DNA of 64,000 nucleotides from Alphaproteobacteria bacterium (lineage in GTDB: Bacteria > Pseudomonadota > Alphaproteobacteria > Rhizobiales > GCA-2746425), in NCBI GenBank assembly GCA_024743215.1, contig JANSWZ010000001.1, forward strand, positions 558,001 through 622,000, read 5' to 3'. Positions within the stretch are counted from its first letter, which is position 1, and every line of letters starts with the position of its first letter. A program made the position numbers and the translations under genes. The notes beneath the pieces were generated by a model. The model worked only from the letters and a program-made list of their open reading frames with translations, had not been told where the DNA came from and ran no database searches. This document shows positions 39,187 through 64,000 of this stretch, piece by piece.

Positions 39187-39570
39187 ATTTATGCTGCTCC
39201 CCAACGAACACGAGTAAACAAATGACCCGTTACCATTTCTGGTGATGTGCCAAAAAGCTCTGCGATAGCCAAATCAAGTCATATGTCGAAATATTGCTGT
39301 TGAGGCCTGAATTCAGAGCATAATTTTGCAATGCGATGTGGGATTGTCTTGTAGGCAAACATTCTAAGAACGCGTTAAAGTTCGCCCGTCGCTGCTTCAG
39401 ATGCTTCACAAAGTCTAAATCTGGAATCATCCCGATATTGATCTGCGCTCTGCCTCGGTTCGCCCTGAGGTCTGGAGTTCGCATAAAGAAATCTTTATAT
39501 CTTCAATTCATTTATTGACATTTTGCTTCCATGGCGCGATTGCAAAGAAAACACCCATTGGAATTTGATC
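39187..39570. other. Divergent intergenic region glmS / bmt
   Basis: 384 bases between divergent genes. A small open frame on each strand shows no recognisable family. The main feature is the palindromic element near its right end (39482-39503), followed by TTGACA (39515-39520), which could be a -35 box for bmt. Nothing else was recognised. Confidence 0.5.
39482..39503. promoter_or_regulatory. Palindromic element upstream of bmt, candidate SahR-type operator
   Basis: The 22-base sequence starting CATAAAGAAATCTTTATATC has perfect 7-base arms ATAAAGA / TCTTTAT around AA. It lies about 70-90 bases before the bmt start. An identical 22-base copy occurs at 45153-45174, before the methyltetrahydrofolate:corrinoid methyltransferase gene. 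From memory it resembles the sites proposed for SahR (ArsR family) ahead of S-adenosylmethionine-cycle genes in alphaproteobacteria; this is unverified. Confidence 0.6.
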
Positions 39571-40578
39571 ATGACCGCCACAACGCTTTCCAGCCTGCTG
39601 GATCAAAAACCTGTTCTACTGGCCGACGGGGCCACAGGAACAAATTTTTTCGATTTGGGTCTTGGACCAGGAGACCCGCCGGAGTTCTGGAATCTGGATG
39701 AACCGGAAAAGGTAACGGAGCTCCATCAGGCTTTTGTTGATGCCGGGTCTGACATCATCCTCACCAACACATTTGGCTCAAACGCCCCTCGTCTGAAGCT
39801 GCACAAGGTTCAGGATCGGGTTTTTGAGTATAATTACGCCGGAGCAAAGCTGGCCCGGGCTGTCGCTGATAAATCAGACCGGCCGGTTGTGGTGGCTGGA
39901 TCTGTCGGTCCGACAGGTGAGTTATTCGCGCCCCTTGGCGAAATGACCTATGATGGCGCTGTCAAAGCATTTGTGGATCAGATGAAAGGCCTGAAAGATG
40001 GCGGTGCTGATGTCGCATGGATTGAAACCATGTCCGCAAAGGAAGAAATGCAGGCTGCAGCTGATGCAGCCAATATTTGCGGCCTGCCCTATGTGGTCAC
40101 GGCCAGCTTCGACACTGCTGGAATGACAATGATGGGACTTCCGCCAGCAGACATGCCGCATCTGCTGGATGGTTTGGAGACCCCCCCATTGGCGGTTGGT
40201 GCCAATTGCGGTGTTGGTGCCTCAGATCTTTTGATGTCGGTTCTGTCAATGTCCGAACAGCCCGGTAACGTGGTCATTGTTGCCAAGGCAAATTGTGGCA
40301 TCCCGCAGATCAAAGGTGATCAAGTGGAATATACCGGCACACCGGATTTGATGGCGGATTATATCCGGCTCGCGGTTGATTCCGGGGCGCGCATTATAGG
40401 CGGGTGTTGTGGCACCTCTGCCATTCATTTGGCTGCCATGCGCGCCGCTCTGGACGCCCACCAAAAGGGAGAGCGGCCGGATGAAACCAAAATCGTCGAG
40501 ACCATTGGACCGATCGTCAATCCAATTTCGTCTGGTGCCGACAAACCTCAGCGCCGCTCGCGCCGCCGAGATCGTTAA
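39571..40578 (+). CDS. bmt: Homocysteine S-methyltransferase, Bmt (betaine-homocysteine) type
   Basis: 335 residues from the ATG at 39571. Zn-dependent homocysteine methyltransferase barrel: 'LLADGATGTNFFDLG', 'DIILTNTFGSNAPRLKLH', and the three zinc cysteines Cys213 ('GANCGVG') and Cys279/Cys280 ('IIGGCCGTSAIHL'). It has no cobalamin or folate domains, unlike MetH. Similar rhizobial genes are called bmt and tied to methionine formation from glycine betaine. The methyl donor here (betaine or a methyl-corrinoid made by its neighbours) cannot be decided. An Arg-rich tail, residues 326-335 ('PQRRSRRRDR'), follows the barrel. Convergent with the MttB-like gene. Confidence 0.85.
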   Translation: MTATTLSSLLDQKPVLLADGATGTNFFDLGLGPGDPPEFWNLDEPEKVTELHQAFVDAGSDIILTNTFGSNAPRLKLHKVQDRVFEYNYAGAKLARAVADKSDRPVVVAGSVGPTGELFAPLGEMTYDGAVKAFVDQMKGLKDGGADVAWIETMSAKEEMQAAADAANICGLPYVVTASFDTAGMTMMGLPPADMPHLLDGLETPPLAVGANCGVGASDLLMSVLSMSEQPGNVVIVAKANCGIPQIKGDQVEYTGTPDLMADYIRLAVDSGARIIGGCCGTSAIHLAAMRAALDAHQKGERPDETKIVETIGPIVNPISSGADKPQRRSRRRDR

Positions 40579-40584
40579 GACGCT

Positions 40585-42249
40585 TTAGTCGGGTTTACCG
40601 TCCTTCAGGCCGAAAGATTCCTGCATGGCGGTGCTGCGGATTTTCATTGAACGCGCCATGGCATCCTTTTTGGGATCCTTTGGTGCGAACGCATCTTCCA
40701 TTTCGCCTTTCCTGCGTGCAATGAAGGCATTCAGACGCTCTTCGATGCCTGGATCAAGCGTTGGTGCTTCATATTCGTGCAGCATCTTTTTCCAAAGCGT
40801 GTTTGCGCGTTGTTCCGCTGTTTGTTCGCCGTCAGCCTGCCACTGCTCGTAGGAGTTGTTGTCCGCAATGGTTGAGCGGTAAAAGGCCGTTTCAAAGTTC
40901 TCCTGCGTGTGCTCGCAGCCCAGATAATGGCTTCCGGGACCAACTTCCCGGATAGCGCTCATAGCCTGACCGGTTTCTGACAGGTCAATGCCTTCAGCGA
41001 AACGCTGCATCATCGCGAGTTGGTCGCAATCCATGACAAATTTTTCATAGGAAGACGCCAGACCGCCTTCAAGCCACCCTGCCGAATGCAATGCAAAATT
41101 TACACCGCCCATGAGGGTTGGCATGATCGTTTGGGCGCTCTCGTAAGCCGATTGGGCATCGCAGACCTTTGAACCGCACAAGGACCCGCCAGAGCGGAAA
41201 GGAATGCCAAGTCTTCTGGCCAATTGGCCAGCACCATACAGAACCAAGGCCGGCTCAGGTGTCCCGAATGTCGGGGCTCCCGATTGCATGGAGATGGAAC
41301 TTGCAAACGTTCCAAACACAACTGGCGCACCAGGGCGGCAAAGTTGAGAGAACGCGGCGCCGGCCATGACTTCTGCCAGTATTTGGGTCAGAGTGCCCGC
41401 AACCGTTACCGGTGACATGGCGCCAGCGAGAATGAATGGTGACACGACGGTCGCCTGCCCGGCCTTTGCATAGACTTTGAGTGCGCCCAGCATGGTTGAA
41501 TCAAATACCATGGGTGAGTTTGCGTTGATCAGGTTGATCAGCACACAATTCTCATCGACAAACTCATCGCCGAAGAGCAATTTCACCATGGCAACTGAAT
41601 CTTCGGCGCGGTCAGGATGGGTGACTGACCCCATGAAGGGTTTATCTGAGTATTTGATGTGGGCCATCACCATGTCGAGATGGCGTTTGTTAACCGGCAC
41701 ATCGACCGGCTCACACACAGTTCCTCCGGAATGGTGGATTGCCGGCGCCATATAGGCCAGCTTCACAAAACTATGGAAATCCTCCAGCGTCGCATAGCGG
41801 CGACCGCCATCAAGATCACGGACGAATGGAGGACCATAGACCGGCGCGAATACGGTTGTTTTGCCGCCAATCTGGACTGAGCGTTCCGGATTTCGTGCAA
41901 ATTGTGTGAATTCACCTGGGGCCGTTTCAATCAGCTTGCGACAAAGTCCTTTTGGGAATCGTACACGCTCGCCTTGCACATCCGCACCGGCGTCGCGCCA
42001 CATCTGCAATGCTTCGGGGTCTTCGCGGAATTCAATGCCAATTTCCTGAAGCACGGTATCTGCATTGGCTTCAATCAAAGCCAGACCTTCTTCGTCCAGA
42101 ATTTCGACGGTCGAGATTTTGCGCAAAATGGCAGGCATCTGAGGATCGCGACGATTGGCACGCAAGGCTCTGCGCCCATCCATGCCGCCGCCGCGTCTGC
42201 GGCGTGGTGATTTTGTTGGTTCTGCGCTGCTTTGGCGACTGTCGGTCAT
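40585..42249 (-). CDS. MttB-family amine:corrinoid methyltransferase, non-pyrrolysine
   Basis: 554 residues from the ATG at 42249. After an Arg/Gly-rich N-terminus ('SPRRRRGGGMDGRRALRANR', residues ~14-33) comes a full MttB-type barrel, e.g. 'TVLQEIGIEFREDPEAL', 'GGTVCEPVDVPVNKRH', 'SGAPTFGTPEPALVLYGAGQ'. There is no in-frame amber codon, so no pyrrolysine; the nearest characterised model is MtgB, a glycine betaine:corrinoid methyltransferase. It would move a methyl group from a quaternary amine to the corrinoid protein encoded divergently at 42515. The substrate (betaine, proline betaine, carnitine, others) is unknown. Confidence 0.88.
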   Translation of the reverse strand: MTDSRQSSAEPTKSPRRRRGGGMDGRRALRANRRDPQMPAILRKISTVEILDEEGLALIEANADTVLQEIGIEFREDPEALQMWRDAGADVQGERVRFPKGLCRKLIETAPGEFTQFARNPERSVQIGGKTTVFAPVYGPPFVRDLDGGRRYATLEDFHSFVKLAYMAPAIHHSGGTVCEPVDVPVNKRHLDMVMAHIKYSDKPFMGSVTHPDRAEDSVAMVKLLFGDEFVDENCVLINLINANSPMVFDSTMLGALKVYAKAGQATVVSPFILAGAMSPVTVAGTLTQILAEVMAGAAFSQLCRPGAPVVFGTFASSISMQSGAPTFGTPEPALVLYGAGQLARRLGIPFRSGGSLCGSKVCDAQSAYESAQTIMPTLMGGVNFALHSAGWLEGGLASSYEKFVMDCDQLAMMQRFAEGIDLSETGQAMSAIREVGPGSHYLGCEHTQENFETAFYRSTIADNNSYEQWQADGEQTAEQRANTLWKKMLHEYEAPTLDPGIEERLNAFIARRKGEMEDAFAPKDPKKDAMARSMKIRSTAMQESFGLKDGKPD

Positions 42250-42514
42250 GGTGATTGCCCTCACGATTTGCCCATAGGCAAAGATGCCGTATGGCACGGG
42301 GATGATGCGTTCCTATTGCGTCATACAGTAGTGGCTTTCGCGACAGTCAACCAGTCCTGACCGCGTTCTGCTGGCGAAGTTTCGTCGTTTCTATCTCGCT
42401 GCAGGTCGTTTTCAGTTGCACGAAACATTAAACAAATGCGGAATACTCTTGCAATTGCACGCGTGGTAACGCAGTGGAATATGAAATACAGCAACGTCCG
42501 AGAGTGAGTTGGTT
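42250..42514. other. Shared divergent control region of mttB-like and corrinoid-protein genes
   Basis: 265 bases between divergent genes of the same pathway. TTGCAC occurs twice (about 42418 and 42458). No cobalamin riboswitch-like core and no copy of the palindrome seen at 39482 was found here. Confidence 0.4.
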
Positions 42515-43216
42515 ATGTCCGATGATGATGACATCATTCTATCCGAATTGAATGACGAAGAACTCGTCCTTCAAATGCATGACGATTTGTATGACGGGCT
42601 GAAGGAAGAAATTGCTGAAAGTGTGAACATTCTGCTGGAGCGGAATTGGACACCTTACGATATTCTCACCAAAGGCCTGGTTGAAGGAATGCGGATCGTC
42701 GGTATCGATTTCCGCGATGGAATTCTTTTTGTTCCTGAGGTTCTTCTGGCTGCCAATGCCATGAAACAAGGCATGGCCATATTACGCCCTCTTCTGACCG
42801 AGACAGGTGCACCCAAGGTTGGGACAATGGTGATTGGCACCGTCAAGGGTGACATTCATGACATTGGCAAGAACCTTGTCGGTATGATGATGGAGGGTGC
42901 CGGATTCGAAGTTTTCGATCTGGGGATCAACAATCCTGTTGAGGACTATCTGGCGGCGATCGAAGAGCACAAGCCGGACATTCTTGGCATGTCTGCGCTG
43001 TTGACCACAACCATGCCCTATATGAAGGTCGTAATTGATACGATGAAAGAAATGGGCATTCGCGATAAGCACATAGTTCTTGTTGGTGGTGCGCCGCTGA
43101 ATGAGGAATTTGGCTTGGCCATTGGTGCTGATGCCTACTGTCGCGACGCAGCGGTTGCTGTTGAAACTGCGAAAGAGTGGATGGCACGCAAGCACAATCA
43201 GATGGCCAACGCATAA
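42515..43216 (+). CDS. Methyltransferase corrinoid carrier protein (MtbC/MttC-like)
   Basis: 233 residues from the ATG at 42515 (GAGTGAG upstream). A four-helix cap domain (~15-95) is followed by a cobalamin-binding Rossmann domain with the base-off/His-on motif D113-I-H-D-I-G118, where His115 is the expected lower cobalt ligand, and 'VLVGGAPLNEEFGLAIGAD'. It carries the methyl group between the MttB-like enzyme and acceptor enzymes. The first 32 residues hold 13 Asp/Glu and one Lys ('MSDDDDIILSELNDEE'), unusually acidic. First gene of the plus-strand operon running to 48254. Confidence 0.92.
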   Translation: MSDDDDIILSELNDEELVLQMHDDLYDGLKEEIAESVNILLERNWTPYDILTKGLVEGMRIVGIDFRDGILFVPEVLLAANAMKQGMAILRPLLTETGAPKVGTMVIGTVKGDIHDIGKNLVGMMMEGAGFEVFDLGINNPVEDYLAAIEEHKPDILGMSALLTTTMPYMKVVIDTMKEMGIRDKHIVLVGGAPLNEEFGLAIGADAYCRDAAVAVETAKEWMARKHNQMANA

Positions 43217-43260
43217 TTTTGCACCGGGAGTGATTTGTCTCCCGCATTGGGAGCCAAAAC

Positions 43261-43920
43261 ATGTCTCTTCCAAGTGAACATATTCTAACTGAACAAGGAT
43301 TTGGTGAAAGCCAAGACGGATCCGTTCTGCTGATCGGTTGTGGTGCTTTGGCGCGCGAAATTCTGGCGCTCAAGGCCGCAAATTCCTGGAATCACATGGT
43401 TCTGCGTTGTTTGCCTGCAAAACTGCATCTCTATCCGGAAAAGATTACACCTGCAGTTCGCGAAGCGATTCACAAAGGACGTGAGGATGGATTTGGAACC
43501 ATCTACATCCTGTACGCTGATTGCGGTACTGGTGGGCATTTGGATGCATTATGTGCCGAAGAAGGTGTTGAGCGCATTGCAGGGCCACATTGCTATTCCT
43601 TCTTTGATGGCAATGAAGCATTCGCCGAACGGGCTGACGATGAAATGCGGTCATTTTATCTGACCGACTTTCTGGTGAAGCAGTTTGACGCTTTTGTCTG
43701 GCGGCCGATGGGGCTGGACCGGCATCCTGAGTTACGGGATATGTATTTCGGCAATTATGAAAGCCTGATTTATCTGGCTCAAACCAACAATCCCGAACTT
43801 GATGCCAAGGCAGCTCTTTGCGCAGAGCGTCTTGGGCTTCGTTATGAGCGTCGTTCAACAGGCTATGGTGATTTGGAAATTTCCATGAAAAGCCTTGCCG
43901 TTGATCGTTTGAGCCCCTAA
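43261..43920 (+). CDS. DUF1638 protein, function unknown
   Basis: 219 residues. Matches the DUF1638 family, whose members I recall near methylamine methyltransferase genes in methanogens and proteobacteria. It has cysteine and histidine motifs, 'LIGCGALARE' (Cys27), 'YADCGTGGHLDALC' (Cys88, His93, Cys98) and 'GPHCYSFF' (His110, Cys111), suggesting metal or corrinoid-related chemistry. No signal peptide or membrane segment. Its position directly after the corrinoid protein (44 bases) supports a role in corrinoid loading, methyl transfer or sensing, but no function is established. Confidence 0.75.
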   Translation: MSLPSEHILTEQGFGESQDGSVLLIGCGALAREILALKAANSWNHMVLRCLPAKLHLYPEKITPAVREAIHKGREDGFGTIYILYADCGTGGHLDALCAEEGVERIAGPHCYSFFDGNEAFAERADDEMRSFYLTDFLVKQFDAFVWRPMGLDRHPELRDMYFGNYESLIYLAQTNNPELDAKAALCAERLGLRYERRSTGYGDLEISMKSLAVDRLSP

Positions 43921-44012
43921 ATCGCTGTCGCAGTCGCATTCCCACCATGTCATGTCGCTGGTAATGCAGCGCAAAGTCAGTATGACCCACATTCTCACCC
44001 TAGGAGCAGGAA

Positions 44013-44327
44013 ATGGCACAGAAGACCATCGTCTATTGGAAAGATATTCCAACGCAGATCATCGTTAAGGCAGGACGCAAGGCTGCCAAACGGGAATTGC
44101 CGGAATATTTCATTCAATCGGTGGACCAATGCGCCATGCGGCTTGGGGCCAAAGACAGTGATGCCTATCTGGAAGAATGGCGACGCGGTTCGCCGGAAGA
44201 GGTATCAAGTGATCTGGAAGCTGAAGCGGATCAGGCATTGGAAGCCATGATTGCGGCTTATCCCAAAACGCGGCTCAAGGCTTTGATTGATGCTGGAGGC
44301 GTTGACCATGGAACTAGCGGTACCTGA
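44013..44327 (+). CDS. Small 'virulence factor' family protein (PF13769-like)
   Basis: 104 residues, soluble. 'YWKDIPTQIIVKAGRK' and 'CAMRLGAKDSDAYLEEW' fit a small family annotated 'virulence factor' in alphaproteobacteria; the name has no clear experimental basis that I know. The gene is always a candidate partner of the MetF-like gene: its last 20 bases overlap that gene's start. The function is unknown; an accessory or scaffold role for the reductase is a guess. Confidence 0.65.
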   Translation: MAQKTIVYWKDIPTQIIVKAGRKAAKRELPEYFIQSVDQCAMRLGAKDSDAYLEEWRRGSPEEVSSDLEAEADQALEAMIAAYPKTRLKALIDAGGVDHGTSGT

Positions 44328-45192
44328 ACAACGATTGACTGCGTCCATTGAGGCTTCGGCCAAACAGGTCCTGTCGACCGATGGGCTGAGCGGACTGTTT
44401 CCGGCCGGCACGTGGGTCTATCTGACTGATGTTGGTGTCGATCCGCTGGATACCATCGTAGCTGCTGCAGCTAAGGTGCGTGCCTGCGGCTATGCTCCAG
44501 TGCCCCACCTTCCTGCCCGGCGCATTGGAAGCCGCGATGCGCTGGAGTTACGGGTCAACCGTTTCGTAGGCGAAGCGGGCGTGGATAATGTTCTGGTCAT
44601 TGCTGGCGAAGCAGATGAGCAGAAAGGCCCCTATTCCGCGTCAATTGATATTTTGCGCAGCGATGTTCTGAGTAAGCATGGCATCCAAAAAATTGGCGTG
44701 GCTGGTCATCCGGAAGGCAACACGACCATTCCGGCAGATATTGTCAAATCAAGTCTGCTCGAAAAAGCGGCTTATGCCGCTGACACAGACGCTGAGATGC
44801 GCATTGTCACCCAGTTCGGGTTTGACGCGGAGCGCTTCATTACCTGGGCTGACAGTCTTCCTGAGCAGGGTATCAGCCTGCCTGTTCACATCGGCATGGC
44901 TGGACCTGCCAAGATGACCACCCTCATCAAATATGCAGCTATATGCGGTGTTGGTCCTTCCATGAGCTTCCTGAAAAAGCGAGGATCAGCCCTTGCCGCG
45001 CTTGCAATGGGTTTTGATCCTGATCCAATTTTGTTGGCGATGGAGGATCATGTGGCCACAAATCCGTTCACTCCCATCAAAGCTGCGCATGTATTTCCCT
45101 TCGGCGGGCTTAAAAAAACAGCGAATTGGCTTGACGAAAGAGGCAGTTGGGACATAAAGAAATCTTTATATCTTGATGCAAGTGTGATTTAA
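44308..45192 (+). CDS. MetF-like methylenetetrahydrofolate reductase
   Basis: 294 residues from the ATG at 44308, preceded by GGAGG with 8-base spacing; the longer frame from 44287 lacks this. TIM-barrel FAD protein of the MTHFR type: 'ASAKQVLSTDGLSGLFPAGTWVYLTDVG' region, 'HLPARRI', 'KIGVAGHPEGNTTIPA', 'VTQFGFDAERF', 'PVHIGMAGPAK'. In this operon it may run in reverse, oxidising methyl-THF made by the next enzyme to methylene-THF, or may supply methyl-THF for methionine. It diverges from canonical MetF, and the 3' end of the gene contains the palindromic element (45153-45174). Confidence 0.8.
   Translation: MELAVPEQRLTASIEASAKQVLSTDGLSGLFPAGTWVYLTDVGVDPLDTIVAAAAKVRACGYAPVPHLPARRIGSRDALELRVNRFVGEAGVDNVLVIAGEADEQKGPYSASIDILRSDVLSKHGIQKIGVAGHPEGNTTIPADIVKSSLLEKAAYAADTDAEMRIVTQFGFDAERFITWADSLPEQGISLPVHIGMAGPAKMTTLIKYAAICGVGPSMSFLKKRGSALAALAMGFDPDPILLAMEDHVATNPFTPIKAAHVFPFGGLKKTANWLDERGSWDIKKSLYLDASVI
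45153..45174. promoter_or_regulatory. Second copy of the palindromic element, inside the 3' end of the MetF-like gene
   Basis: Identical over 22 bases to 39482-39503, with arms ATAAAGA / TCTTTAT. It lies inside codons of the MetF-like gene (encoding IKKSLYL) and 54-75 bases upstream of the next start codon at 45228. That suggests an internal promoter/operator separately controlling the methyltetrahydrofolate:corrinoid methyltransferase and activator genes. Confidence 0.6.
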
Positions 45193-45227
45193 GCACTTCA
45201 GAACCGCTAACAAATTGGAATTACCCC

Positions 45228-46172
45228 ATGACACAGACTGTTGTCGCGTCCGAAACGCGCACGGCCATTATTGGCTTCGACCAACCTTTCTGCGTGATTG
45301 GTGAGCGTATTAATCCCACAGGTCGTAAAAAGCTGGCAGCCGAAATGCTTGCGGGCAATTTTGAAACTGTGAAAGCAGATGCCCTGGCTCAGGTTGCGGC
45401 TGGCGCGACCATGCTGGATGTGAATGCTGGTGTAACAAGCATCGATCCGAATGAAAGCGAACCTCCTTTGCTTGCAGCCACGGTTGAGCTGGTTCAATCG
45501 CTGGTGGATGTGCCTCTTTGCATCGATTCATCCGTCCCGGCCGCGCTTGCCGCGGGCCTTGCCGTCTGCAAAGGCCGCCCTTTGGTGAACTCGGTTACTG
45601 GGGAAGAGGATCGGCTGGAAATCGTACTGCCGCTTTGCAAAAAATATGATGTCCCCGTTATTGCCATTTCAAATGACGAAACCGGAATTTCGGAAGACCC
45701 GGATGTCCGGTTTGCGGTTGCCAAGAAAATTGTCGAACACGCAATGGATTACGGCATCAAGCCACATGATATTGTTGTTGATCCTCTGGTTATGCCGATT
45801 GGCGCCATGGGTACGGCTGGATTGCAGGTGTTTGCCCTGGTGCGTCGTTTGCGTGAAGAATTGAAGGTCAATACAAGTTGCGGAGCTTCGAATGTTTCGT
45901 TTGGTATACCGCACCGTCACGGCATCAATGCAGCCTTCCTGCCAATGGCGATTGCTTCTGGCATGACATCTGCGATCATGAACCCTTGCCGTCCCGCGGA
46001 GATGGAAGCCGTTCATGCGGCAAATGTGCTGATGGGGACTGATCCGAATTGCCAGACCTGGATTTCCAAGTATCGGGATCACGTTCCTGGTAATGCTGCG
46101 GCGCCAACTGCCGATGCTGGTGGTGGTGGACGTCGCCGTGGTGGGCGGGGCGCACGCCTCGCAAAAGCCTAA
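45228..46172 (+). CDS. Methyltetrahydrofolate:corrinoid methyltransferase (MtvA/AcsE-like)
   Basis: 314 residues, a pterin-binding (DHPS-like) barrel: 'CVIGERINPTGRKKLAAEM', 'ATMLDVNAGVTSIDP', 'LCIDSSVPAALAAGL', 'NTSCGASNVSFGIPHRHG'. It resembles the folate domain of MetH and stand-alone methyl-THF:corrinoid methyltransferases. It would pass the methyl group from the methylated corrinoid carrier to THF, or the reverse. The C-terminus is a Gly/Arg-rich tail (298-314, 'GGGGRRRGGRGARLAKA') not needed for the fold. 35 bases after the MetF-like gene, 15 before the activator gene. Confidence 0.9.
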   Translation: MTQTVVASETRTAIIGFDQPFCVIGERINPTGRKKLAAEMLAGNFETVKADALAQVAAGATMLDVNAGVTSIDPNESEPPLLAATVELVQSLVDVPLCIDSSVPAALAAGLAVCKGRPLVNSVTGEEDRLEIVLPLCKKYDVPVIAISNDETGISEDPDVRFAVAKKIVEHAMDYGIKPHDIVVDPLVMPIGAMGTAGLQVFALVRRLREELKVNTSCGASNVSFGIPHRHGINAAFLPMAIASGMTSAIMNPCRPAEMEAVHAANVLMGTDPNCQTWISKYRDHVPGNAAAPTADAGGGGRRRGGRGARLAKA

Positions 46173-46187
46173 ATCGGAGCAACTCCC

Positions 46188-48254
46188 TTGAGCGATCCAG
46201 CCAGTTCTGATGCAAATCACACTACCAGTATCGCAGATGATGCGTTGGTATTGTTCATGCCGTCGGGTCGACGTGGAAATTTTCCCGTCGGCACTCCGGT
46301 GCTTGATGCTGCGCGCTCATTGGGTGTGTACATAGAATCTGTTTGTGGCGGGCGCGGCATATGCGGTCGGTGTCAGGTGACGGTAGCCGAAGGGCAGTTT
46401 GCCAAACACGGAATTACCAGTTCAGCAGATCATTTGGCGGCTTTTACCGACACTGAAGCACGCTATCGCTCAAAACGCAGCCTGGCCGATGACCGACGCC
46501 TCTCTTGCTCTGCCAAAGTCACTGGCGATATTGTCATCGACATTCCGCAAGATGTGCAGATGCAGCGTCAGGTCGTGCGCAAACGCGCAGAGTATAAACG
46601 CATTGACCGCGACCCTGCGATCCGTCTGCATTTTGTGCAGGTCGAAGAGCCCGATATGGAACAACCATTGGGCGATCTGGATCGTTTGCTGACAGCGTTG
46701 AAGACGGAGTGGCACCTTGAACATCTCCAGATTGAAACATGGCTCTATCCAAAGGTTCAATCGATCCTGCGCAAGGGAAAATGGGAAGTCACCGCGGCCG
46801 TTCACACGGCCGACGGCATTTCAACCTTGATTGGTTTGTGGCCCGGTTTTCATGACAAGTTTTACGGTGTGGCCTTTGATATTGGCTCAACCACAATAGC
46901 TTGTCATCTATCTGATATGATGAGCGGCCGCACGATTGCTTCGTCCGGGACCTCCAACCCGCAAATTCGGTTTGGCGAGGACCTGATGTCCCGCGTTTCA
47001 TTTGTGATGATGAATCCGGGTGGCGAAGAGCAATTAACAAAATCTGTCCGTGATGCCATCCGCAGCCTGATAGAAAAAGTCTGTTCGGAAGCCGGAATAG
47101 ACCGGCATGCCATCCTCGATTCCGTATTCGTCGGCAATCCGGTCATGCATCATTTGTTCCTTGGCATCGACCCAACTGAGCTTGGCGGCGCGCCGTTTGC
47201 GCTGGCTGTCTCCGGCGCATTGGACTTTCCGGCGCGTGATCTTGAGCTGGATCTACATCCGGGCGCACGGACTTACATTCTGCCCTGTATAGCAGGACAT
47301 GTGGGCGCGGATGCTGCCGCTGCAACACTGGCGGAAGCTCCGCACAAGGAAGAAGAATATACCTTGCTTGTGGATGTGGGCACCAATGCGGAGATTGTTC
47401 TTGGTAACAAAGATCGCATTGTTGCGGCCTCTTCTCCAACTGGCCCTGCCTTTGAAGGTGCCGAGATTTCCTGTGGCCAACGCGCTGCGCCAGGTGCGAT
47501 TGAACGGGTCAGGATTGATCCTGAAACATTGGAGACTCGCATCAAGGTCGTCGGTGTTGATGAATGGTCGGATGACCCCGGCTTTGCTGAGCAGATTGAA
47601 GCTGTTGGCGTTACCGGCGTGTGCGGCTCCGGCATTATCGAAGTTCTGGGTGAAATGTTTCTGGCCGGCCTGATTGATGAAGATGGTGTTGTTCAGGGGG
47701 CAATGGCTGAAAAGTCTGACCGCGTCATCGCTGATGGACGCACATTCAGCTACATTTTGTGGCGCGGCGCTGTGGAACTGAAAATCACACAGACTGATGT
47801 TCGTTCCATTCAGTTGGCGAAAGCTGCATTGTATGCTGGGGTTAAACTGTTGATGGACAAGCTGGAGATCAGCGAAATCCGCAAGGTTAAACTGGCGGGG
47901 GCGTTTGGCAGTTATATTGACCCGAAATACGCCATTCTCATTGGTCTGATTCCTGATTGCGATCTCAGCAAGGTTTCAGGTGTTGGGAACGCTGCCGGAA
48001 CTGGCGCTCGCATGGCGTTGCTCAATCGAGTACACCGTACCGAAATTGAAACTCTGGTTCGTCGTATCGAGAAGATTGAAACTGCACTTGAGCCAAAATT
48101 CCAGGAGCACTTTGTCAACGCCATGGCGTTTCCCAACAAAGTCGATGCGTTTCCAAATCTGTCTGAAAAGGTGAGACTGCCGGAACGTAAACAAGGTTCG
48201 TCCGGGTCTGAGAACTCTTCCGGTGGTCGGCGGCGTCGGCGGTCTCGTAGCTGA
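46188..48254 (+). CDS. Corrinoid reductive activator ([2Fe-2S] + ASKHA ATPase, DUF4445/RACE type)
   Basis: 688 residues from a TTG (46188) preceded by GGAG. N-terminal plant-type [2Fe-2S] ferredoxin domain with Cys53, Cys59, Cys62 and Cys107 ('SVCGGRGICGRCQ', 'RRLSCSAK'), a linker, then an ASKHA-type ATPase domain ('GVAFDIGSTTIACHL', 'LLVDVGTNAEIVLG', 'KVKLAGAFGSYID'). Such proteins use ATP to reduce accidentally oxidised Co(II) corrinoid to Co(I), which is essential in an aerobic cell. The C-terminal tail is 'GGRRRRRSRS' (679-688). It completes a working corrinoid methyl-transfer set. Confidence 0.9.
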   Translation: MSDPASSDANHTTSIADDALVLFMPSGRRGNFPVGTPVLDAARSLGVYIESVCGGRGICGRCQVTVAEGQFAKHGITSSADHLAAFTDTEARYRSKRSLADDRRLSCSAKVTGDIVIDIPQDVQMQRQVVRKRAEYKRIDRDPAIRLHFVQVEEPDMEQPLGDLDRLLTALKTEWHLEHLQIETWLYPKVQSILRKGKWEVTAAVHTADGISTLIGLWPGFHDKFYGVAFDIGSTTIACHLSDMMSGRTIASSGTSNPQIRFGEDLMSRVSFVMMNPGGEEQLTKSVRDAIRSLIEKVCSEAGIDRHAILDSVFVGNPVMHHLFLGIDPTELGGAPFALAVSGALDFPARDLELDLHPGARTYILPCIAGHVGADAAAATLAEAPHKEEEYTLLVDVGTNAEIVLGNKDRIVAASSPTGPAFEGAEISCGQRAAPGAIERVRIDPETLETRIKVVGVDEWSDDPGFAEQIEAVGVTGVCGSGIIEVLGEMFLAGLIDEDGVVQGAMAEKSDRVIADGRTFSYILWRGAVELKITQTDVRSIQLAKAALYAGVKLLMDKLEISEIRKVKLAGAFGSYIDPKYAILIGLIPDCDLSKVSGVGNAAGTGARMALLNRVHRTEIETLVRRIEKIETALEPKFQEHFVNAMAFPNKVDAFPNLSEKVRLPERKQGSSGSENSSGGRRRRRSRS

Positions 48255-61618: not shown

Positions 61619-61884
61619 CGTTCAACTACTTTCGTCTGGACGCTATAAGGTTGTTATTCCTTTCTTAAGTCCTTACCGTTGCTGGATGACACACGCAAGA
61701 CTGGAATGCGGTCCTGAGACAATTGATTCCATATTTCCATGTGGCACATTTATGTCCGTAGACAGGTGGCTGAGTTCAGAGACGGTTAACATTGCTCTGA
61801 GCCATCCAAGGAAATTTGTGTCTATTCACGTTTTAGTGTTGTCCGAATGAATCCCGTTTGCTAAAGCGACACCGACCAGATGAA
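61619..61884. other. Intergenic region upstream of tRNA-Cys
   Basis: 266 bases between divergent pcm-like and tRNA-Cys. Apart from the tRNA promoter candidate at its right end, no gene, hairpin or repeat stood out. Confidence 0.4.
61839..61867 (+). promoter_or_regulatory. Candidate promoter of tRNA-Cys
   Basis: TTGTCC (61839-61844) and TAAAGC (61862-61867) are 17 bases apart and end 18 bases before the mature tRNA. Fair -35, weak -10. Confidence 0.35.
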
Positions 61885-61958
61885 GGCCTCGTGGCGGAGT
61901 GGTTACGCAGCGGATTGCAAATCCGTGAACCCCGGTTCGATTCCGGGCGAGGCCTCCA
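61885..61958 (+). tRNA. tRNA-Cys (GCA)
   Basis: 74 bases including an encoded CCA (61956-61958). Acceptor stem GGCCTCG pairs with CGAGGCC; anticodon loop TTGCAAA gives anticodon GCA (Cys); T-arm contains GGTTCGATTCC. All four arms can be drawn. An open frame running through it is an artefact. Confidence 0.95.
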
Positions 61959-62023
61959 ATTTCCAACAAAGCCGTTTTCGCGCCAAGATTTGGGCATCAG
62001 CTTATGACCAGTCGAGGCCTGAC

Positions 62024-63013
62024 ATGAAACATGGTGGTGATCCCCCATTCAAAAACAAGGCGGATCGCAGGGATTGGCTTGACCTGTCCACGGGTATCAA
62101 TCCGCAGTCCTATTCCGTTCAAAACTTATCTGCGGCTGATTGGCAATCGCTTCCGAGCCAGTTCGGTCTGGATGAGTTGCAATCTGCTGCAAGACGTTAC
62201 TATCAAGTCCCAGATTCAATCGGAATTATTGCTGTTCCGGGAACGGAAGCGGCCATCAGCCAGTTTCCAGCATTTTGTCCAGGTTCGGTTGATATCATCG
62301 AACCAACCTATTCCAGCCATCGCAGCGCCTGGTCGGCTGATGGCCGAATAGCGACTTCGCGCAGCGCCTTGCCTGCCAAGCCTGCCCAGAACCATCTTGT
62401 GGTTGTTAATCCAAACAATCCGACTGGGGAACTTGTGGCTCCGGGGGAATTACTGGCTGTCGCTCGCAGTCTGGTACCTGACCGGTTTTTGTTTGTGGAT
62501 GAGGCTTTCATGGATTGCACCCCCGAGATGAGTGTTGTCCCACATTTGCTGCCCGACATGCCGGTTATCGTGTTGAAGTCATTTGGAAAGTTTTTTGGTC
62601 TGGCCGGTTTGAGGCTTGGTTTCGTCATCGGTCATCCGGCGTTGCTTACCGAGTTTTCCAACCGCTTTGGCGAATGGTGCGTTAGCGGCCCTGCCCTGAA
62701 AATCGGGGCGGCAGCTTTCAACGATACCCAGTGGCAGTCCACCATGCGTGGCCGGCTCGGCACAAAGATGGACACATTGGCGGATTTGTTGTCTCCCCGG
62801 CTTGAGTTGGTGGGCAAAACAAATCTATTTCTGACATGTCGACACAGGGACGCTCAGGGCCTTCACCATTTTTTGGCCGATCATAAAATCTGGACCCGAA
62901 TCTTTTCGTATGAACCAGATTGGTTACGTTTTGGCCTTCCCGAAACCGAATTTGACCTTATGCGTCTTGGGCAGTGCCTGGCTGCATTCGATGAACCGCT
63001 CGGCAGGCCCTGA
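62024..63013 (+). CDS. cobC: Threonine-phosphate decarboxylase (cobalamin synthesis)
   Basis: 329 residues from the ATG at 62024 (GAGG upstream); the frame upstream runs through the tRNA gene and is not coding. Class I/II PLP aminotransferase fold with 'LDLSTGINPQSY' (characteristic of this family), 'VVVNPNNPTGELV', 'FVDEAFMD', and the PLP-binding lysine in 'VLKSFGKFFGLAGLRLGF'. It produces (R)-1-amino-2-propanol phosphate for the nucleotide loop of cobalamin. Followed by cobD with a 3-base gap. Confidence 0.93.
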   Translation: MKHGGDPPFKNKADRRDWLDLSTGINPQSYSVQNLSAADWQSLPSQFGLDELQSAARRYYQVPDSIGIIAVPGTEAAISQFPAFCPGSVDIIEPTYSSHRSAWSADGRIATSRSALPAKPAQNHLVVVNPNNPTGELVAPGELLAVARSLVPDRFLFVDEAFMDCTPEMSVVPHLLPDMPVIVLKSFGKFFGLAGLRLGFVIGHPALLTEFSNRFGEWCVSGPALKIGAAAFNDTQWQSTMRGRLGTKMDTLADLLSPRLELVGKTNLFLTCRHRDAQGLHHFLADHKIWTRIFSYEPDWLRFGLPETEFDLMRLGQCLAAFDEPLGRP

Positions 63014-63016
63014 GAG

Positions 63017-64000
63017 ATGTTGCTTGATTACACGCTTTTTCTATCCGGCACGCTTGCAAGTCTTCTGGTGGCTTTGCTGCTAGACGCTGTTTTTGGCGAT
63101 CCAGACTGGATCTGGCGGCGCCTGCCCCACCCTGTTTCCTGGATTGGGGCGCTCATTTCGGGTTCTGACAAACTCTTGAACTTCCGGGGAAACGGTACAG
63201 TCAATTATCTGTCTGGAACATTTGCCATTTTGGTTTTGGCCGGGCTGGCAGGAATTGCGGGATTGGGCATGCGCTGGGTGTCGGCTCAATCATTGGGCGG
63301 GTCAATTGCGATGATTGTCCTTGCTGCCATTCTGCTGGCTCAGAAGAGCCTCTATGTGCATGTTGCGCGCGTTGTCATCGCTCTGGGTGATCCCGACATT
63401 CAGGTAGCACGACGCGCGATTGCCATGATCGTTGGACGCAATCCGGATGATCTTGATCGTGACGCGATCTCACGCGCTGCTGTTGAATCCACAGCGGAAA
63501 ACCTTTCCGATGGTGTAATAGCACCAGCATTCTGGTTTGCCATTGCCGGTTTCCCCGGGTTGCTGGTTTACAAAACCGTCAATACCGCCGATTCCATGAT
63601 TGGGCACCGTAATGAGACTTATGGCGCTTTTGGATGGGCAACTGCGCGGCTGGATGATCTTCTCAATCTTATTCCTGCACGCTTGACGGCACTCTTACTG
63701 TCTCTGTGTGCCCCGATTGTCGGCGGGTCACCGCTCAGGTCCATTATCGGAGCTGTTCGTGAAGCAGGTTGGCACAAATCTCCGAATGCAGGGTGGCCGG
63801 AGGCCGCGACAGCATATGCGTTGGGTATTTCGTTGGCTGGACCCAGGCAATATGGCAATGAGACGGTCGATGCGCCCTTCTTCAATGCATCAGGGCGAAC
63901 TGATTGTGATAAGCAAGATGTGCGACGTGCATTGCGTTTGATGATTGCTGCTCTGGTTTTGCACTGGCTGATCTATTTGGGCCTTTATGCTTCTCTGGCG
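63017..64000 (+). CDS. cobD: Adenosylcobinamide-phosphate synthase (3' end outside window)
   Basis: 328 codons are visible from ATG 63017 and the frame is still open at the window edge, so only a short C-terminal piece can be missing. Multi-pass membrane protein of the CobD/CbiB family: 'LLLDAVFGDPDWIWRRLPHP', 'VESTAENLSDGVIAP', 'VNTADSMIGHRNETYGAFG', and 'ARLDDLLNLIPARLTALLL'. It attaches aminopropanol phosphate (from CobC) to adenosylcobyric acid. Forms a cobCD pair relevant to the corrinoid-dependent enzymes at 39.5-48 kb. Confidence 0.93.
   Translation, partial: MLLDYTLFLSGTLASLLVALLLDAVFGDPDWIWRRLPHPVSWIGALISGSDKLLNFRGNGTVNYLSGTFAILVLAGLAGIAGLGMRWVSAQSLGGSIAMIVLAAILLAQKSLYVHVARVVIALGDPDIQVARRAIAMIVGRNPDDLDRDAISRAAVESTAENLSDGVIAPAFWFAIAGFPGLLVYKTVNTADSMIGHRNETYGAFGWATARLDDLLNLIPARLTALLLSLCAPIVGGSPLRSIIGAVREAGWHKSPNAGWPEAATAYALGISLAGPRQYGNETVDAPFFNASGRTDCDKQDVRRALRLMIAALVLHWLIYLGLYASLA

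What the first reader, a model, noticed from the sequence alone, without database searches (positions are those of the whole stretch)
39482..48254. Compact corrinoid methyl-transfer system in an apparently aerobic alphaproteobacterium
Eight genes encode every part of a corrinoid one-carbon route: MttB-family methyltransferase without pyrrolysine, corrinoid carrier (DxHxxG), methyl-THF:corrinoid methyltransferase, MetF-like reductase, reductive activator, and a Zn homocysteine methyltransferase, plus DUF1638 and a small unknown protein. Such routes are best known in anaerobes. Here the likely flow is quaternary amine -> methyl-corrinoid -> THF (then oxidation) or -> homocysteine (methionine). 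Homologous clusters exist in other rhizobia, so this is poorly characterised rather than certainly new; the substrate and the direction of the MetF-like step are open.
Basis: partly seen in the sequence, partly recalled or inferred. Interest (0 to 1): 0.85.

Follow-up and report, generated by a model that had tools for sequence, protein, structure and literature searches.

The report
Split methionine synthase and betaine demethylase
This gene cluster of an alphaproteobacterium most likely strips methyl groups from glycine betaine and also makes methionine, using one shared vitamin B12 carrier protein; such a system was described in 2025, but a small conserved partner protein in it, labelled a 'virulence factor', seems to have gone unnoticed.

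Summary
In detail: eight genes at 39523-48254 encode an MttB-family methyltransferase, a B12 carrier, DUF1638, a 104-aa PF13769 protein, a MetF-like protein, a methyl-THF:corrinoid methyltransferase, a RACo-type activator and a homocysteine methyltransferase. The system is already published: it matches MtgBCDE, the combined glycine betaine demethylase and split methionine synthase of Ruegeria pomeroyi (PMC12478193), whose methionine half was found earlier in Phaeobacter (PMC5764234). A Sinorhizobium meliloti pSymB carries a related cluster, 57-83% identical in six proteins. New here: (1) the host genome shows no MetH or MetE, so these genes are probably its main methionine synthase; (2) a standard MetF lies elsewhere and the cluster's MetF is of another kind, which favours methyl-THF oxidation; (3) PF13769 is a constant companion, in 34 of 38 sampled genomes with MttB plus RACo and in 0 of the other 152, and is one coding frame with RACo in one record. 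My searches found no paper naming it in this role. Substrate and directions remain inferred. A new member of a known kind with one apparently unreported component.

The parts
39523..40578 (+). mtgE-like homocysteine S-methyltransferase (PF02574; NCBIfam label betaine--homocysteine S-methyltransferase); ATG start possible at 39571
   Evidence: best solved relative is the methionine synthase 1q7m (133.7 bits) rather than BHMT 1lt7 (52.6 bits); matches MetH profile positions 43-322
40585..42297 (-). mtgB-like MttB-superfamily methyltransferase without pyrrolysine; ATG start possible at 42249
   Evidence: 838.9 bits to 4yyc, 431.5 bits to glycine betaine methyltransferase 9yce, 129 bits to trimethylamine methyltransferase 7xcl; the only PF06253 match in the genome
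42509..43216 (+). mtgC-like corrinoid carrier; divergent from mtgB
   Evidence: DIHDIG motif in 22 of 22 compared; 83% identical to the S. meliloti pSymB carrier
43261..43920 (+). DUF1638 protein, possible metal-binding helper in corrinoid reactivation
   Evidence: Cys27, 88, 111 and His56, 110 invariant and Cys50 at least 90% in 20 aligned; no solved relative
44013..44327 (+). PF13769 ('Virulence_fact') 104-aa protein, proposed accessory of the corrinoid system
   Evidence: co-occurrence 34 of 38; conserved WKD/WRDIPxQ motif; one coding frame with RACo in Terrarubrum
44287..45192 (+). metF2-like methylenetetrahydrofolate reductase, proposed to run as methyl-THF oxidation; its start overlaps the end of PF13769
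45228..46172 (+). mtgD-like methyl-THF:corrinoid methyltransferase
   Evidence: (PRK07535, 396.7 bits, cut-off 259); matches MetH profile positions 323-596
46188..48254 (+). RACo/RamA-type reductive activator of corrinoid (2Fe-2S + ASKHA)
61880..64000 (+). start of the neighbouring cobalamin gene group (class I/II aminotransferase, likely cobC, and CobD/CbiB); beyond the window follow, on the other strand, cobQ, cobO, cobN, cobW and a cobP-like gene

Best explanation
The cluster is an MtgBCDE-type system. MtgB (40585-42297) moves a methyl group from a quaternary amine, most likely glycine betaine, to Co(I) on the carrier MtgC. MtgD passes it to tetrahydrofolate, and the MetF2-like enzyme oxidises methyl-THF to methylene-THF for energy and biosynthesis. 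For methionine, MtgD runs the other way or MtgC is loaded by MtgB, and MtgE takes the methyl group from MtgC to homocysteine. The RACo activator, with DUF1638 and probably PF13769, returns oxidised Co(II) to Co(I). Shown here by sequence: gene content, motifs, no detected MetH or MetE, a second MetF, downstream sarcosine oxidase genes and B12 genes. Inferred from published relatives: substrate, directions and the methionine role. Inferred here only: the part played by PF13769.
For: Families and motifs. The genome's four MetH-profile matches are the three cluster proteins, which cover its homocysteine, folate and B12 segments, and one 29.5-bit hit elsewhere; no MetE match. A separate standard MetF, 333 bits, over cut-off. 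The MttB protein scores 431.5 bits to glycine betaine methyltransferase against 129 to trimethylamine methyltransferase. Three soxB matches over cut-off; the one examined lies beside a soxA over cut-off and a DAO/FAO_M/GCV_T protein, an architecture I take for a dimethylglycine dehydrogenase. B12 genes about 14 kb downstream. S. meliloti pSymB has mtgB, mtgC, DUF1638, PF13769, a MetF module, mtgD and RACo in the same order and orientation, with other genes inserted, 57-83% identical in the six compared. Published mutants of mtgC and mtgD in R. pomeroyi and fitness data in P. inhibens.
Against: No experiment in this organism. MttB proteins use many substrates, and the tools cannot read the substrate from sequence. 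P. inhibens Bmt (an MtgE) makes methionine from betaine and DMSP on its own in vitro, so MtgE might not need MtgC. Of 34 sampled genomes with PF13769, 14 also have a MetH over the cut-off, so such a cluster is not always the methionine synthase. The PF02574-type hit on contig 3 (29.5 bits to the MetH profile) could be another homocysteine methyltransferase; it was not examined. GbcB was found only under its cut-off (best 76.5 against 500 bits), but GbcA was not searched. The direction of MetF2 rests on homology, and I did not compare it with the R. pomeroyi MetF2 itself.
Confidence: 0.85

Rival explanations
1. MtgE is a stand-alone betaine (or DMSP)-homocysteine methyltransferase, and MtgBCD plus MetF2 is a separate catabolic route; the two merely sit side by side.
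For: P. inhibens Bmt is reported to make methionine directly from DMSP and betaine in vitro; NCBIfam names the protein betaine--homocysteine S-methyltransferase, 494.4 bits against a cut-off of 338.
Against: MtgE is closer to the MetH homocysteine module than to BHMT (133.7 against 52.6 bits); with no MetH or MetE detected the cell would then make methionine only when betaine or a like donor is at hand; in R. pomeroyi mtgC and mtgD mutants are methionine auxotrophs. That the bmt deletion of P. inhibens is a methionine auxotroph fits both readings.
Confidence: 0.1
2. The MttB protein acts on another quaternary amine (proline betaine, carnitine, gamma-butyrobetaine, choline) rather than glycine betaine.
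For: Members of the MttB superfamily use several such substrates (Discussion of PMC12478193; titles and abstract starts); sequence alone does not settle it.
Against: Only one MttB gene in this genome, together with sarcosine oxidase and dimethylglycine-dehydrogenase-like genes; a good score to glycine betaine methyltransferase, although the five solved sequences matched bear no other quaternary-amine specificity by name.
Confidence: 0.2
3. The MetF-like enzyme works as a normal reductase, making methyl-THF for MtgD and MtgE, and the cluster is chiefly for methionine.
For: Reduction is the direction given as physiological for mammalian members of the family; MtgE and MtgD are in the same cluster.
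Against: A standard MetF is present elsewhere; the cluster enzyme is close to 7xg9 (159.4 bits) and far from the other solved reductases matched (29.6 bits or less); I recall 7xg9 to be the Sphingobium SYK-6 enzyme, and a review describes the SYK-6 enzyme as preferring oxidation; in R. pomeroyi MetF2 is the most induced protein on N-osmolytes.
Confidence: 0.15

Closest known systems
MtgBCDE of Ruegeria pomeroyi DSS-3 (PMC12478193)
   Same: Same four modules, RamA-type activator, DUF1638 and a metF2; host without MetH.
   Different: Genes are dispersed in R. pomeroyi and in one cluster here; R. pomeroyi has two induced PF06253 proteins, this genome one PF06253 gene. The words 'virulence' and SPO2161 do not occur in its main text; supplements were not read. 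I had no R. pomeroyi sequence to compare.
Cluster on pSymB of S. meliloti Ak57 (record CP090106.1)
   Same: mtgB divergent from mtgC, then DUF1638, PF13769, MetF module, mtgD, RACo in the same order; 57-83% identity in six proteins.
   Different: The MetF slot holds MetV (PF12225) plus a MetF over the Pfam cut-off instead of MetF2; no mtgE in the 18.3-kb stretch; other genes inserted. PMC12478193 reports MtgBCDE and B12 genes colocalised in S. meliloti; I did not establish that this is the same locus.
Split methionine synthase of Phaeobacter inhibens (PMC5764234)
   Same: Three MetH modules as separate proteins plus RamA-like and DUF1638 proteins.
   Different: A methionine role only was described in the passages I read, without MttB.
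MtgABC of Desulfitobacterium hafniense
   Same: Glycine betaine to corrinoid to THF scheme, as described in PMC12478193.
   Different: An anaerobe; PMC12478193 places its carrier apart from the roseobacter MtgC. The placement of the window's carrier was not tested by a tree.

Membership tests
MtgBCDE dual glycine betaine demethylase / split methionine synthase | Separate MtgB (PF06253), MtgC (PF02310), MtgD (PF00809) and MtgE (PF02574) genes | tested here: met
MtgBCDE dual glycine betaine demethylase / split methionine synthase | RamA-type activator and DUF1638 present | tested here: met
MtgBCDE dual glycine betaine demethylase / split methionine synthase | Usually found without MetH (108 of 156 MtgBCD genomes in the paper) | tested here: met
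   no MetH over cut-off and no MetE match in an assembly given as 100% complete
MtgBCDE dual glycine betaine demethylase / split methionine synthase | mtgC and mtgD needed for methionine synthesis and for growth on glycine betaine | not testable with these tools
   needs mutants
MtgBCDE dual glycine betaine demethylase / split methionine synthase | Glycine betaine is the substrate of MtgB | tested here: inconclusive
   431.5 bits to a glycine betaine methyltransferase, but the substrate cannot be read from a score
MtgBCDE dual glycine betaine demethylase / split methionine synthase | Carrier falls in the aerobic MtgC clade | not tested
   no tree was built; 83% identity to the S. meliloti pSymB carrier only
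Pyrrolysine-containing trimethylamine methyltransferase (MttB) | In-frame TAG and match over the trimeth_pyl cut-off | tested here: not met
   open frame of 570 aa; 272.6 bits against cut-off 525
Human-type BHMT | Closer to BHMT than to the MetH homocysteine module | tested here: not met
   (52.6 against 133.7 bits)
Human-type BHMT | Betaine-binding residues of BHMT | not tested
   PMC12478193 says the S. meliloti homologue lacks them; not checked here
Methyl-THF-oxidising MetF subfamily (SYK-6 type) | Sequence relation to the SYK-6 enzyme and preference for oxidation | tested here: inconclusive
   159.4 bits to 7xg9; that 7xg9 is the SYK-6 enzyme is recalled; activity not testable

The most novel reading that the evidence does not exclude
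PF13769, now called 'virulence factor', is an essential but undescribed partner of the MtgBCDE system: it works with the RACo activator (with which it forms one coding frame in Terrarubrum flagellatum), helping to dock or reactivate the corrinoid carrier. It stays constant while the methylene-THF reductase beside it is exchanged among MetF2, MetV-MetF, MetF-MetV or none.
Probability: 0.5. Interest if true: 0.55.

Novelty: new member of a known kind. Interest (0 to 1): 0.36.

Why it matters
The cluster is a compact, complete copy of a B12-dependent system that joins osmolyte breakdown and methionine synthesis, in a genome where no other methionine synthase was detected. The PF13769 link gives a testable role to a family now annotated as a virulence factor, and points to a possible missing part of how these bacteria keep corrinoid proteins active.

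Tried and rejected
Riboswitch control of the cluster: the only Rfam match at gathering score in 36000-64000 is a tRNA. Promoter and terminator patterns were no more frequent than in shuffles (6 against a mean of 7.0, and 11 against 10.8). Solved relatives of DUF1638 and PF13769: none at E up to 1. Literature on PF13769: no paper held carries the accession; of the CvfC papers I saw only the listing of 5. PMC12366328 passages gave nothing of use. Pyrrolysine MttB was rejected. I considered PF13769 as a subunit of the MetF module, because a MetF module is the next recognised gene in 19 of 34 stretches, but it is kept where mtgD (5) or RACo (2) follows, so I favour the activator. No structure could be predicted.
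Full report
Observation. The eighth, the MetF-like protein, falls about one bit short but aligns over 264 residues with a solved methylenetetrahydrofolate reductase, 7xg9, at E 1.4e-45; the other eight solved sequences matched score 29.6 bits or less. Key motifs are present: DIHDIG in the carrier, in 22 of 22 carriers compared; GANC and GGCCG in the homocysteine enzyme; CX5CX2C in the activator.

Literature. The system is published. PMC12478193 (abstract and introduction, Results and Discussion read, plus passages) shows that MtgC and MtgD of Ruegeria pomeroyi are needed both for methionine synthesis and for growth on glycine betaine. It names RamA and DUF1638 as predicted reactivation parts and MetF2 as the likely methyl-THF oxidiser, and says that in S. 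meliloti MtgBCDE, the reactivation modules and the B12 operon are colocalised. PMC5764234 (passages) found the split methionine synthase, the RamA-like protein and DUF1638 in Phaeobacter by mutant fitness. PMC12366255 (passages) reports that the Phaeobacter Bmt can make methionine alone in vitro, a rival reading for the homocysteine enzyme. PMC13001107 (passages) describes a subfamily of methylenetetrahydrofolate reductases, with Sphingobium SYK-6 as the example, that prefers oxidation. Supplements were not read.

The host genome. The assembly has 5.09 Mb and is given as 100% complete. No MetH exceeds the cut-off: the four matches to the MetH profile are the three cluster proteins, covering profile positions 43-322, 323-596 and 633-863, and one 29.5-bit hit on contig 3 that I did not examine. 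MetE gives no match, while the same search rings in 10 of 14 control genomes. A standard MetF lies on contig 5. GbcB gives only sub-threshold matches; GbcA was not searched. Three soxB matches exceed the cut-off. One was examined: soxA follows it, and on the other strand beside it lies a DAO/FAO_M/GCV_T protein, which I take for a dimethylglycine dehydrogenase from its domains. B12 genes begin at 61880 in the window, with cobQ, cobO, cobN, cobW and a cobP-like gene just beyond it. The only named relative that the contig scan returned is Rhizobiales bacterium IMCC20636, with the same eight genes in the same order. I did not test whether the organism is aerobic.

MttB. This is the only PF06253 match in the genome. 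It scores 838.9 bits to 4yyc, 431.5 to a glycine betaine methyltransferase and 129 to trimethylamine methyltransferase. The S. meliloti pSymB protein reads the same as 4yyc over the part of its first 400 residues that both outputs show, compared by eye. Glycine betaine is the likeliest substrate but is not proven.

Comparison with S. meliloti pSymB. mtgB, mtgC, DUF1638, PF13769, mtgD and RACo have the same order and orientation, with further genes inserted; identities are 71, 83, 61, 57, 78 and 66%. The MetF slot differs: MetV (PF12225) plus a MetF over the Pfam cut-off there, MetF2 here. No mtgE lies in the 18.3-kb stretch, so this may not be the S. meliloti locus of the paper.

PF13769. In 190 sampled genomes of the class, PF13769 is found in 34, DUF1638 in 34, RACo in 41 and MttB in 40. 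All 34 PF13769 genomes have both MttB and RACo; of the 38 genomes with MttB and RACo, 34 have PF13769 and 32 have DUF1638. The four without PF13769 are G071, G077, G173 and G178; three are 82-88% complete, and G077 (95%) has only partial RACo and MttB matches in the rows listed. Four PF13769 genomes show no DUF1638: G007, G074, G109 and G176. The genomes are related, so the Fisher values (8.7e-32 with MttB, 5.1e-31 with RACo) overstate independence. A MetH over the cut-off is present in 14 of the 34. Stretches were fetched for 30 of the 35 PF13769 matches, the window's own among them; with L002 and L062-L064 that makes 34. Of these, 33 show another cluster gene; the exception, L024, lies near a contig end. 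The next recognised gene downstream is MetF2 in 9, MetV-MetF in 8, MetF-MetV in 2, mtgD in 5 and RACo in 2; in 8 none is recognised next to it, though one of these (L016) has a weak MetV match 1.4 kb on. DUF1638 lies just upstream in 24 of 34, one of them (L020) by a weak partial match. In Terrarubrum flagellatum one annotated 760-aa CDS holds PF13769 followed by Fer2 and RACo; this is a single record. The protein is strongly conserved: Trp9, Asp11, Ile12, Pro13, Gln15, Leu29, Phe33, Asp38, Ala41, Tyr52 and Leu53 are invariant in the 16 sequences I chose to align from 37 on hand. The words searched for it do not occur in the main text of either key paper, and no paper held carries its accession. 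The PF13769 search also rings in Bacillus subtilis among 14 controls, so the family is wider than this system.

DUF1638. In 20 aligned sequences, out of 30 on hand, Cys27, Cys88, Cys111, His56 and His110 are invariant and Cys50 is at least 90% conserved. This pattern suggests a bound metal or cluster, which would suit a redox or cobalt-handling helper; it is inference.

Verdict. A new member of the MtgBCDE kind. It is interesting mainly as the likely main methionine synthase of its host and for the PF13769 lead.

Noticed in passing
window 44013-44327: PF13769, annotated elsewhere as 'virulence factor', belongs to a corrinoid cluster in the genomes sampled; the label is probably misleading there.
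   Followed up: yes
L062:9296-10971, L063:8336-9825: MetV (PF12225) plus MetF, a pair I recall from acetogens, sits in the MetF slot of this cluster in S. meliloti and Azoarcus; the window has MetF2 instead.
   Followed up: partly
L064:6001-8283: One annotated CDS in Terrarubrum flagellatum joins PF13769 with Fer2 and RACo.
   Followed up: partly
   Followed up: no
window 41082-41181, - strand: Sub-threshold Rfam match to PYLIS_3 (31.8 bits, gathering 38) inside mtgB, although the frame has no TAG; probably plain mttB sequence homology.
   Followed up: no
window 43261-43920: DUF1638 has three invariant and one nearly invariant cysteine and two invariant histidines in 20 aligned sequences, suggesting a metal site; the passages I read do not discuss one.
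   Followed up: partly
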